Source of the DNA: Elusimicrobiota bacterium
GTDB taxonomy: Bacteria; Elusimicrobiota; Elusimicrobia; UBA1565; UBA9628
Direction of reading: 5' to 3'
DNA length: 64,000 nucleotides
NCBI GenBank assembly: GCA_016182905.1
Contig: JACPFR010000021.1
Coordinates: 1 to 64,000, forward strand
Of this stretch, positions 3,880 to 6,785 are shown in pieces. The translations under genes and the position numbers were made by a program. Within the stretch, counting starts at the first letter, position 1, and each line of letters opens with the position of its first letter. The notes below the pieces were generated by a model. The model searched no databases and was not told the origin of the DNA. It saw only the letters and a list, made by a program, of their open reading frames with translations.

Positions 3880-4641
3880 TCAGCGGGCCCGGATCAGGAC
3901 GGTGAAGCCCCAGACGAGGGACCGGTAAAGGGCCTTATAGGACCCCCCGCCGGAGGAGACCGCGTAGGCCGAGGAGGTCGTCCAGACCACGTCGCGCAGG
4001 GCCACGCTCGGGCCCACGGAGACGGCCGCGGAAGGGTGCCACAAGCCCGCCAGGTACCACCAGCGCTCGTAGTACGAACGCGTGCCGAAGTTCAGCGGGA
4101 TATAGGTGCCGTGGCGGAGGAAGACCGTCGCCTTCGGCTCCAAGCCCTCGAGCCAGAACCAGGCGAGCTCCGGCTCGAGCTTGAGGGAGCTCTGGTTGTT
4201 GAAGAAGTTGCGCTCGTAGCGGACCTTGAACGCGCCGACGAAGCTCCCTCCCAGGCCCGCGCGCGGCGTCGCGTCGAGGATGAGGATGTTCTCCGGACGG
4301 TTCCCGGTCGGCCGCCAGAACCACGTCCCCGCTCCGTTGTTCGTCCAATCGTCGTCGTGCCGGGCGCCGCTCTGCACCTGGTAGAAAACGCCGAGCTTGA
4401 GGTTCCGGTGGGCCCTCCCGTAGGTCCCCAAGGTCAAGGAGCGCTGCGGTCTCTGTCCCTCGAACTGCCAGCGCTCGGTAAGGTCGGCGAGCGGCTCGAG
4501 GCGCCCCGCGCGCCCCATCACGCGCGCCGAGGCCTCGTACTCCGGCAGGCGCCCGCGCGGGACCTGCGGGACGGGCGCGGCGAAGGCCGCGGACGCGGCC
4601 CACGCGAGGAGGAAGGCGGCCTTAACGGTAATCTTGGTCAA
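3880..4641 (-). CDS. predicted outer-membrane beta-barrel protein
   Basis: A 253-residue protein of unknown function. A signal peptide ends near Ala21 (AASAAFA). The mature part alternates polar and aromatic residues in strand-like blocks (WFWLEGLEPKATVFLRHG, RSYYERWWYLAGLW), rich in Trp, Tyr and Phe, as expected of a small outer-membrane barrel. It starts with TTG, overlaps the end of the upstream FecR-domain gene by 20 bases, and must be translated with it. The shared operon suggests a joint envelope role. I cannot name a substrate. Confidence 0.6.
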   Translation of the reverse strand: MTKITVKAAFLLAWAASAAFAAPVPQVPRGRLPEYEASARVMGRAGRLEPLADLTERWQFEGQRPQRSLTLGTYGRAHRNLKLGVFYQVQSGARHDDDWTNNGAGTWFWRPTGNRPENILILDATPRAGLGGSFVGAFKVRYERNFFNNQSSLKLEPELAWFWLEGLEPKATVFLRHGTYIPLNFGTRSYYERWWYLAGLWHPSAAVSVGPSVALRDVVWTTSSAYAVSSGGGSYKALYRSLVWGFTVLIRAR

Positions 4642-5323
4642 GGAGGTCCGCGTAGGCGCCGTCCAGATCCGTCTCGTCCTCGACCGGGCTCTTCTCGGCG
4701 TCCATGTTCCAGTTGAGGCTCTTGGTCCAGTCGTAGGCCTGCGGCTTGGTGAGGTCGACCCCGGCCTTGATCAGCACGCCTTTGCCCGCGGGCACGAGCA
4801 GGCTCTCCTTCGACTTGTCCGTCGAGAGCTCGACGGCGCCCTCGTTGACGCACACCCACAGGTCCCGGGACTTGCCCTTGGCGCGCCCGTAAGCCGTGAA
4901 GAACTCCGTGCCGCGCACGGCGGCGACGGCGGACGGCGTGCGCACGTTGAACTGCCGGCCGGCGAGGCGCTTCGTGATCTTCGCGAACACCGAGCCGTAG
5001 GAGAGGAAGGCCTCGGCCAAGGTCTCGGACTTCGAGCCGTTCGCGCCGGGCCAGGTCACGGCGACGCGGCTGGACCCGCGCAGCTTGAGGCGGGAGCCGT
5101 CGGGCAGCTCGATGACGGCGCCGGCGCCCTGCGCCGTGGTCACGGAGGCGCCGTGGTCGAGCCGCGCTCCGGTCTTGCCGAGGCCGCCGCCGTGCTCGGA
5201 CTCGACGGTCACGTCCCCCTTCACGTACACGAGCCGCGCGGAGGGAGCCTTGGGATCCGCCGCGAGCAAGGGGCCGGCGGCGAGGAGGAAGATGGCCGAT
5301 AGAAGTCCGATTCTCGTCGTCAT
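4622..5323 (-). CDS. FecR-domain secreted protein
   Basis: A 233-residue protein with an N-terminal signal peptide (cleavage near LLAADP). A FecR domain follows: a strand VKGDVTVES, the block GAVIELPDGSRLKLRGSSRV, and later QFNVRTPSAVAAVRGTEF, the family hallmark. There is no transmembrane anchor and no sigma factor nearby, so it is probably a free periplasmic FecR-type protein and not an anti-sigma regulator. It is divergent from uvrC and overlaps the outer-membrane protein gene downstream. A TAGAAT box sits 6 bases before its ATG. Confidence 0.8.
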   Translation of the reverse strand: MTTRIGLLSAIFLLAAGPLLAADPKAPSARLVYVKGDVTVESEHGGGLGKTGARLDHGASVTTAQGAGAVIELPDGSRLKLRGSSRVAVTWPGANGSKSETLAEAFLSYGSVFAKITKRLAGRQFNVRTPSAVAAVRGTEFFTAYGRAKGKSRDLWVCVNEGAVELSTDKSKESLLVPAGKGVLIKAGVDLTKPQAYDWTKSLNWNMDAEKSPVEDETDLDGAYADLLDQDYR

Positions 5324-5356: not shown

Positions 5357-6658
5357 ATGGAGCCTTTGGACCGCCGCCACCTCCCTCATAAGACCGGCGT
5401 CTACATCATGTGCGACGCCGGTGGGGAGATCCTCTACATCGGCAAGGCGCTGGACCTGGCCAAGCGCGTCGCGAATTATTTCAATCCCAACAAGGAGGAC
5501 CTCAAGAACCAGAGCCTCGTCCCCCTGATCCGGCGCATCGACTACGTCCTGTGCGAGTCCGAGCGCGAGTCCCTGCTGCTCGAGCGCCGCCTGATCAACG
5601 AGCACCAGCCCTTCTTCAACGTGATGTGGAAGGACGGCAAGACCTACCCGTACATCAAGGTCACTTTGGGCGAGGATTATCCAAGGATCTTCACCACGCG
5701 CCGCAAGGTCCGCGACGGCGGCGCCTACTTCGGCCCCTTCCCGAAGGTCTCCCCGATCCGGGCGCTCCTGCGCTACCTCTGGAAGCAGCGCCTGTTCCCC
5801 CTCCGGCCGTGCCGCTGGGAGTTCTCCGAGGCGAAGCCGCTGGACAAGCGCAAGATCACTTCGTGCCTGTACTACCACACCGGGGAATGCCCGGCGCCGT
5901 GCGCCGGGAAGACCTCGAAGAGCGCCTACCGCGACATCGCCGAGAGGGCCGTGCTGTTCTTCAAGGGCCGGTACGACGACCTCCGGGCGGAGTTCGAGCG
6001 GGACATGCAGGCCGCGTCGAAGGAGCTGGACTACGAGCGCGCGGCGCAATTGCGCGACAACGTCCTGGCCCTGTCCCAGATGGGCGAGCGGGTGCGGGTG
6101 CGCGCCGTCGAGGCCGACCAGGTGGGCGGCCACACCGCGCGCACGCAGATGGTCACGGACCTCCAGAAGGCCCTGATGCTCCCGACCCCGCCGGTGCACA
6201 TCGAGTGCTTTGACATCTCGCACTTCCAGGGCCATCAGACCGTCGCGTCCATGGTCTGCTTCACCGGCGGCAAGGCCAACCGGGACCACTACCGGAAGTT
6301 CAAGATCCGGGACACGGCGGGCATCGACGACTTCAAGTCCATGCACGAGGCCGTGTACCGGCGCTACAAGCGCCTCAAGGCCGAGAAAGCCGCCCTGCCC
6401 GACCTCATCCTCATCGACGGCGGCAAGGGCCAGCTCGGCGCCGCCCAGGAGGCCCTCAAGGCGCTCGGGCTCAAGATCCCGATGGCCTCGCTGGCCAAGC
6501 GCATCGAGGAGGTCTTCGTCCCGGGCCGCTCCGAGTCCATCCTCCTGCGCCTCGACGACCCCGCCCTGCGCCTGCTCCAGCAGCTGCGCGACGAGGCCCA
6601 CCGCTTCGGCGTCGCCTACCACCGCCTCCTGCGCGACAAGAGCCTGTTCGAAGGATAG
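5357..6658 (+). CDS. uvrC: compact UvrC-type excinuclease subunit lacking the HhH domain
   Basis: Nucleotide excision repair nuclease. GIY-YIG domain at residues 11-90 (GVYIM, LYIG, then NEHQPFFN). Four cysteines C152, C170, C178 and C182 match the iron-sulfur ligands reported for E. coli UvrC. A UVR motif lies near 222-240. The RNase-H-like nuclease keeps D286 (ECFDISH), D354 (LILIDGG) and H415 (DEAHRF). At 433 residues it is far shorter than the usual 600: roughly 100 residues between the UVR motif and ECFDISH are missing, and it ends right after the nuclease domain, without the tandem helix-hairpin-helix. The stop is clean and no HhH coding follows; a repeat element begins 7 bases later. 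Confidence 0.9.
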   Translation: MEPLDRRHLPHKTGVYIMCDAGGEILYIGKALDLAKRVANYFNPNKEDLKNQSLVPLIRRIDYVLCESERESLLLERRLINEHQPFFNVMWKDGKTYPYIKVTLGEDYPRIFTTRRKVRDGGAYFGPFPKVSPIRALLRYLWKQRLFPLRPCRWEFSEAKPLDKRKITSCLYYHTGECPAPCAGKTSKSAYRDIAERAVLFFKGRYDDLRAEFERDMQAASKELDYERAAQLRDNVLALSQMGERVRVRAVEADQVGGHTARTQMVTDLQKALMLPTPPVHIECFDISHFQGHQTVASMVCFTGGKANRDHYRKFKIRDTAGIDDFKSMHEAVYRRYKRLKAEKAALPDLILIDGGKGQLGAAQEALKALGLKIPMASLAKRIEEVFVPGRSESILLRLDDPALRLLQQLRDEAHRFGVAYHRLLRDKSLFEG

Positions 6659-6665
6659 GCGCGAG

Positions 6666-6785
6666 CGGTGTCAGGCTCGCAAATTCGTTGAATTCTCCTG
6701 AAAGCAGAAGGCCCCGGCAGCGTCGCCGAGGCCTTCCCACTCGCGGACGTCCTAAGAATTCAACGAATTTGCGAACCTGACACCG
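6666..6785. repeat. 120-bp element with 31-bp terminal inverted repeats (MITE/REPIN-like)
   Basis: The arms 6666-6696 and 6755-6785 are inverted copies matching at 30 of 31 bases. Each outer end reads CGGTGTCAGG and each inner end GAATTC. The core holds a second hairpin (GAAGGCC paired with GGCCTTC, with an inner CGGC/GCCG), which may act as a terminator. The element exactly fills the gap between the convergent stops of uvrC and pilC. It has no coding capacity. The arms resemble the palindromic sequences associated with REP-type tyrosine transposases, but none is encoded here. Confidence 0.8.

What the first reader, a model, noticed from the sequence alone, without database searches (positions are those of the whole stretch)
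5357..6658. Compact UvrC without the HhH domain and inter-domain region
The protein keeps the GIY-YIG domain, four presumed Fe-S cysteines, the UVR motif and the three RNase-H-like catalytic residues. It lacks about 100 residues before the nuclease domain and ends right after it. Standard UvrC is near 600 residues. It could be a lineage-specific minimal form, or a second, specialised copy.
Basis: partly seen in the sequence, partly recalled or inferred. Interest (0 to 1): 0.6.

Follow-up and report, generated by a model that had tools for sequence, protein, structure and literature searches.

The report
Phylum-wide compact UvrC repair nuclease
Every sampled family of the bacterial phylum Elusimicrobiota carries, as its only copy, a UvrC DNA-repair nuclease about 170 residues shorter than usual, missing an inactive middle domain and the C-terminal DNA-binding domain but keeping both cutting sites, so these two domains are probably dispensable for nucleotide excision repair.

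Summary
ORF 5357-6658 (+) encodes a 433-residue UvrC that keeps GIY-YIG, the four cysteines, UVR and the RNase H domain, and scores above NCBI's uvrC cut-off (392.6 vs 285.45 bits). It lacks Pfam PF22920, the central RNase-H-like domain (about 117 residues), and the C-terminal helix-hairpin-helix domain (about 55).

It is not a local truncation or a second copy. It is the only UvrC in its genome, beside one UvrA and one full-length UvrB. Representatives of all 23 sampled Elusimicrobiota families have the same form; PF22920 appears in 1 of 199 genomes, as a contig-edge fragment. Across 87 compact sequences the GIY-YIG residues, four cysteines and D-D-H triad are invariant, and the UVR-to-nuclease tether is 37 residues in about 90% (range 35-38). 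The form is one clade, consistent with a single loss before the phylum radiated.

I found no intact compact UvrC in two control phyla. A published study reports a partial, presumably convergent parallel in gastric Helicobacter, and H. pylori tolerates UV with its single HhH motif broken.

Most likely it is the phylum's ordinary repair nuclease, positioned by UvrB and a fixed short tether. Biochemistry is inferred, not shown.

The parts
5357..6658 (+). uvrC, compact form, 433 aa plus stop
   Evidence: ORF; TIGR00194 uvrC 392.6 bits over cut-off 285.45
5393..5611 (+). GIY-YIG nuclease domain (residues 13-85), predicted 3' incision; Y16, Y27, R37, E76 invariant (N88 just outside)
   Evidence: Pfam PF01541; 87/87 invariant; Foldseek match to 1yd6
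5810..5902 (+). four-cysteine loop (C152, C170, C178, C182), predicted [4Fe-4S] ligands
   Evidence: 87/87 invariant; aligned with the cysteines of full-length UvrC
5993..6079 (+). UVR motif (residues 213-241), predicted UvrB-binding
   Evidence: Pfam PF02151; M217 and E227 invariant
6080..6190 (+). short tether (residues 242-278) where full-length UvrC carries the central RNase-H-like domain PF22920; 37 residues in about 90% of compact sequences
   Evidence: hinge with pLDDT under 50 at residues 244-256
6164..6613 (+). RNase-H-like nuclease domain (residues 270-419), predicted 5' incision; D286 (6212-6214), D354 (6416-6418), H415 (6599-6601)
   Evidence: Pfam PF08459; triad 87/87 invariant; Foldseek 8b0q, 2nrt
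6614..6655 (+). C-terminal end of the long helix (residues 420-433); the protein stops where the (HhH)2 domain would begin

Best explanation
This is the orthologous, only and working UvrC of the Elusimicrobiota. Shown by sequence: it is single-copy, vertically inherited, and has lost exactly two modules, the central catalytically inactive RNase-H-like domain and the C-terminal (HhH)2 DNA-binding domain, while both nuclease sites, the four-cysteine loop and the UVR motif are strictly conserved. Inferred mechanism: UvrA2B loads UvrB at a lesion; UvrC docks on the C-terminal UVR domain of UvrB through its own UVR motif; GIY-YIG cuts on the 3' side; the RNase H domain, held at the end of a short tether of nearly fixed length, cuts on the 5' side. 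DNA contacts that (HhH)2 supplies elsewhere would come from UvrB, the Fe-S loop and the RNase H surface. Because the central domain, thought to act as a platform holding UvrC in a closed state, is absent, incision would be controlled by docking to UvrB rather than by self-inhibition.
For: Sole UvrC RNase H domain in a 97% complete genome, beside one UvrA of 942 aa and one full-length UvrB of 674 aa. Near-universal full-length UvrB in the phylum, 143 of 150 genomes, usually matched over the whole model including its C-terminal end. All 23 sampled families compact; PF22920 in 1 of 199 genomes. Catalytic residues and cysteines 87/87 invariant; tether 35-38 residues, 37 in about 90%. Compact form is one clade, SH-aLRT 99. 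The missing piece folds on its own as an RNase-H-like domain, pLDDT 94, Z 10.4 to UvrC's own nuclease domain. Precedent: H. pylori with its single HhH motif disrupted keeps near wild-type UV tolerance, while catalytic mutants do not (PMC9426483).
Against: No experiment exists on any of these proteins, as far as I could find. In E. coli the (HhH)2 domain is needed for ssDNA binding and 5' incision (PMC7835731) and for UV survival (PMC9426483). No substitute DNA-binding domain was identified. The platform and closed-state model of the central domain is from memory (Seck et al. 2023); that paper was not held. UvrA was tested only in the window's genome.
Confidence: 0.75

Rival explanations
1. UvrC has been repurposed: with (HhH)2 gone it makes only the 3' incision or acts outside excision repair, for example in recombination.
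For: E. coli (HhH)2 is needed for 5' incision (PMC7835731); H. pylori UvrC has a nuclease-independent role in DNA import (PMC9426483).
Against: The 5' nuclease triad D286, D354, H415 is invariant in 87 of 87 sequences, as are the GIY-YIG residues and UVR anchors. UvrB is retained in 143 of 150 genomes.
Confidence: 0.12
2. The lost DNA-binding function is supplied in trans by another protein, so the compact UvrC works only with an unknown partner.
For: Not directly supported; it would explain how the loss was tolerated. Compact-specific residues (W91, P129, W142, Y172, T175) cluster around the Fe-S region, which could be a changed interface.
Against: The four HHH_5 proteins of the genome are NusA, PolX, LigA and RuvA, with no orphan HhH protein of that family. 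The flanking genes in the window, a FecR/LipL45-like protein and a PilC/GspF protein on the opposite strand, are unrelated.
Confidence: 0.08
3. Local truncation, frameshift or assembly error of an ordinary UvrC.
For: None found for this gene.
Against: Same length and end point in relatives at 96-48% identity and across the phylum; clean two-block deletion in the alignment.
Confidence: 0.01
4. The compact form is the ancestral architecture, and the central pseudo-nuclease (a duplicate of the RNase H domain) and (HhH)2 were gained in the other bacteria.
For: The central domain is structurally closest to UvrC's own RNase H domain, as a tandem duplication would give. The tree is unrooted, so polarity is not fixed by it.
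Against: Full-length UvrC is found in all sampled other phyla and PF22920 also in archaeal controls. Elusimicrobiota is not usually placed at the base of Bacteria (own knowledge), so loss is simpler.
Confidence: 0.03

Closest known systems
Orthodox UvrC (TIGR00194; E. coli, T. maritima, D. radiodurans)
   Same: GIY-YIG, four-cysteine loop, UVR, RNase H domain with D-D-H triad; about 38-46% identity to full-length homologues over the shared parts; orthologue by model score
   Different: Lacks the central RNase-H-like domain PF22920 and the C-terminal (HhH)2; tether 37 residues instead of about 154
UvrC of gastric Helicobacter (H. felis, H. suis), as described in PMC9426483
   Same: The middle region is reported absent in both species, and the HhH region truncated or missing in all Helicobacter compared; the closest known architecture
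   Different: A few species in an unrelated phylum, presumably an independent loss; I could not obtain those sequences to compare the boundaries
Cho, Cho-like and exonuclease-Cho fusions (UvrC relatives without the 5' nuclease)
   Same: GIY-YIG and cysteine domain; some keep a UVR-type domain (PMC1564403)
   Different: They lack the RNase H nuclease, which is intact here; they are usually additional to UvrC, not its replacement

Membership tests
UvrC orthologue (NCBIfam TIGR00194) | Score above the curated equivalog cut-off | tested here: met
   392.6 bits vs 285.45
UvrC orthologue (NCBIfam TIGR00194) | GIY-YIG nuclease with catalytic Y, Y, R, E and N | tested here: met
   Pfam; 87/87 invariant
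UvrC orthologue (NCBIfam TIGR00194) | Four conserved cysteines after GIY-YIG | tested here: met
   87/87
UvrC orthologue (NCBIfam TIGR00194) | UVR motif for UvrB binding | tested here: met
   PF02151 residues 213-241
UvrC orthologue (NCBIfam TIGR00194) | RNase-H-like 5' nuclease with D-D-H triad | tested here: met
   PF08459; triad invariant; structural match to 8b0q and 2nrt
UvrC orthologue (NCBIfam TIGR00194) | UvrB-dependent dual incision | not testable with these tools
   Needs biochemistry
Orthodox five-part UvrC architecture | Central RNase-H-like domain PF22920 | tested here: not met
   Absent; 1 of 199 phylum genomes, a contig-edge fragment
Orthodox five-part UvrC architecture | C-terminal (HhH)2 domain | tested here: not met
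   No HhH match; protein ends before it
Cho / Cho-like | No RNase H nuclease; additional to a UvrC | tested here: not met
   RNase H present and intact; only copy

The most novel reading that the evidence does not exclude
A whole phylum runs nucleotide excision repair with a UvrC that has no self-inhibiting platform domain and no (HhH)2. Placement of the 5' cut would be set by UvrB docking and a tether of nearly fixed 37 residues, so incision spacing or regulation may differ from the E. coli rule.
Probability: 0.35. Interest if true: 0.65.

Novelty: new variant of a known kind. Interest (0 to 1): 0.48.

Why it matters
UvrC has been hard to study; the role of (HhH)2 rests mainly on work in E. 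coli, and the role of its central pseudo-nuclease domain is little tested. Here evolution has made the deletion cleanly and kept it across a phylum with both active sites intact. That makes the protein a natural minimal UvrC for biochemistry and structure, and a direct test of which domains dual incision needs. It also warns annotators that a UvrC of about 430 residues in Elusimicrobiota is complete, not a fragment.

Tried and rejected
Second specialised copy: rejected. Truncation or frameshift: rejected. HhH supplied by an orphan protein: the genome's HHH_5 proteins are NusA, PolX, LigA and RuvA. Compensatory positive charge: the shared parts of compact UvrCs are on average more basic (26 vs 16 net), but some full-length Cloacimonadota UvrCs reach 42 and the window's own value is 18, so it is not decisive. 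The single PF22920 hit in the phylum (G149) is at the very end of a 3.4-kb contig, in frame behind an unrelated protein segment that looks PhoU/DUF47-like by eye, and is probably chimeric. PF22920 also misses T. maritima, so its absence alone is not proof; frame lengths and alignments carry the claim. Short UvrC frames in the control phyla that I looked at (G279, G284, G225, G395, G360, G310) lie at contig ends; one short frame in Bacillota (G404, 248 aa) was not examined. Viral contigs hold no relative. Literature searches for a short, truncated or minimal UvrC, or for UvrC in Elusimicrobia, found nothing relevant. The 2023 D. radiodurans UvrC paper and the 2007 EMBO J paper were not held. 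The nearest sister phyla of Elusimicrobiota could not be reached for a search.

Full report
The finding is real. The ORF at 5357-6658 (+) encodes 433 residues from an ATG. Pfam finds GIY-YIG (13-85), UVR (213-241) and the UvrC RNase H domain (270-419), and nothing else. NCBIfam scores it as uvrC above the equivalog cut-off. Full-length UvrCs from Cloacimonadota and Clostridia, run the same way, also show PF22920, a central RNase-H-like domain of 116 positions, and C-terminal HhH domains. In the alignment the two absences are clean blocks.

Size of the losses. From the end of UVR to residue 279 the compact proteins have 35-38 residues, 37 in about 90% (79 of 87; 77 of 86), while full-length ones have 147-172 with one outlier at 226, most often 154. 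The tail after the DEAHR motif is usually 14-25 residues against 68-90 or more.

Copy number and partners. The genome (3.98 Mb, 97% complete) has one UvrC RNase H domain, one UvrA and one full-length UvrB. The four HHH_5 proteins are NusA, PolX, LigA and RuvA, so no orphan protein of that family offers the missing domain.

Distribution. The nearest loci are all Elusimicrobiota, 96-48% identical, ending at the same point. Over 199 genomes of the phylum, 183 have the RNase H domain and only one has a PF22920 match, a contig-edge fragment. Representatives of all 23 sampled families were read or matched and all are compact; longer open frames are upstream read-through, an internal insertion (G115), or the fusions noted below. 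UvrB is near universal at full length, 143 of 150. In two control phyla the UvrC frames are about 600 residues, and the short ones examined lie at contig ends. The tree puts all compact sequences on one side of a branch with SH-aLRT 99. That is consistent with a single loss before the phylum radiated, although the tree is unrooted.

Constraint. Across 87 compact sequences Y16, Y27, R37, E76, N88, the four cysteines, D286, D354 and H415 never vary. Both nuclease sites and the UvrB anchor are therefore under strong selection. Compact-specific residues (W91, P129, W142, Y172, T175) lie in or near the Fe-S region. The compact clade is on average more basic in the shared parts, but not uniquely so.

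Structure. AlphaFold2 gives two halves joined by a low-confidence hinge at 244-256 and a long C-terminal helix 402-432 that carries H415. They match the solved UvrC halves 8b0q, 2nrt and 1yd6. The region absent here, predicted alone from a full-length UvrC, is a confident RNase-H-like fold (pLDDT 94.3) most like UvrC's own nuclease domain (Z 10.4). So canonical UvrC holds tandem RNase H folds, and this lineage has only the active one. The idea that the central one is an inactive platform keeping UvrC closed is from memory (Seck et al. 2023), not from a held paper.

Mechanism, inferred. UvrB docking through UVR, a 3' cut by GIY-YIG, and a 5' cut by the RNase H domain on a short tether of nearly fixed length. 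The E. coli literature assigns (HhH)2 a need in ssDNA binding and 5' incision (PMC7835731). But H. pylori with its single HhH motif disrupted is near wild type for UV, while catalytic mutants are not, and that paper notes that H. felis and H. suis lack the middle region and that HhH is truncated or missing in all Helicobacter compared (PMC9426483). This is an independent precedent for both losses, and it lowers novelty. The 2006 GIY-YIG survey lists UvrC only with the EndoV-like nuclease plus HhH, or variants without both (PMC1564403). No held paper that I found reports the phylum-wide form.

Verdict: an orthologous, probably functional UvrC in a new architecture fixed across a phylum. What would change this is biochemistry, which I could not run.

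Noticed in passing
window 6666-6785: A 31-bp inverted repeat (GGTGTCAGGYTCGCAAATTCGTTGAATTC) right after uvrC. The genome holds 24 copies, mostly in inverted pairs from tens of bp to about 3 kb apart. One pair on contig 16 encloses a Y1/IS200-like transposase (locus L217:2234-2980), so these look like REPIN elements of a RAYT transposase.
   Followed up: partly
L153, L154, L157 (genomes G015, G024, G009; families f11 and f13): The compact uvrC frame runs on without a stop into a membrane or signal-like stretch and a lytic transglycosylase (SLT) domain, 671-684 aa in all. In a relative (L151) the SLT gene is a separate frame just downstream. No ATG/GTG/TTG is visible at the SLT start in L153, so this may be a true UvrC-SLT fusion.
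   Followed up: partly
L152, L155 (genomes G012, G027, family f11): The same SLT domain lies in frame behind a polytopic membrane protein that looks like a glycosyltransferase, again without an obvious start codon; an odd gene-joining habit in this family.
   Followed up: no
L020 (CP096137.1, complete Elusimicrobiota genome): The compact uvrC is interrupted by a frame break after 148 codons; probably a sequencing error.
   Followed up: no
window 5741-5812 (residues 129-152): About half of the compact UvrCs (40 of 86), including the window's, have a 2-residue insertion (..LLRYLWKQR..) before the first cysteine, absent from all 55 full-length UvrCs compared.
   Followed up: partly
window 4622-5323 (-): The gene divergent from uvrC encodes a secreted FecR-like protein weakly similar to leptospiral LipL45 and Lsa33.
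   Followed up: no
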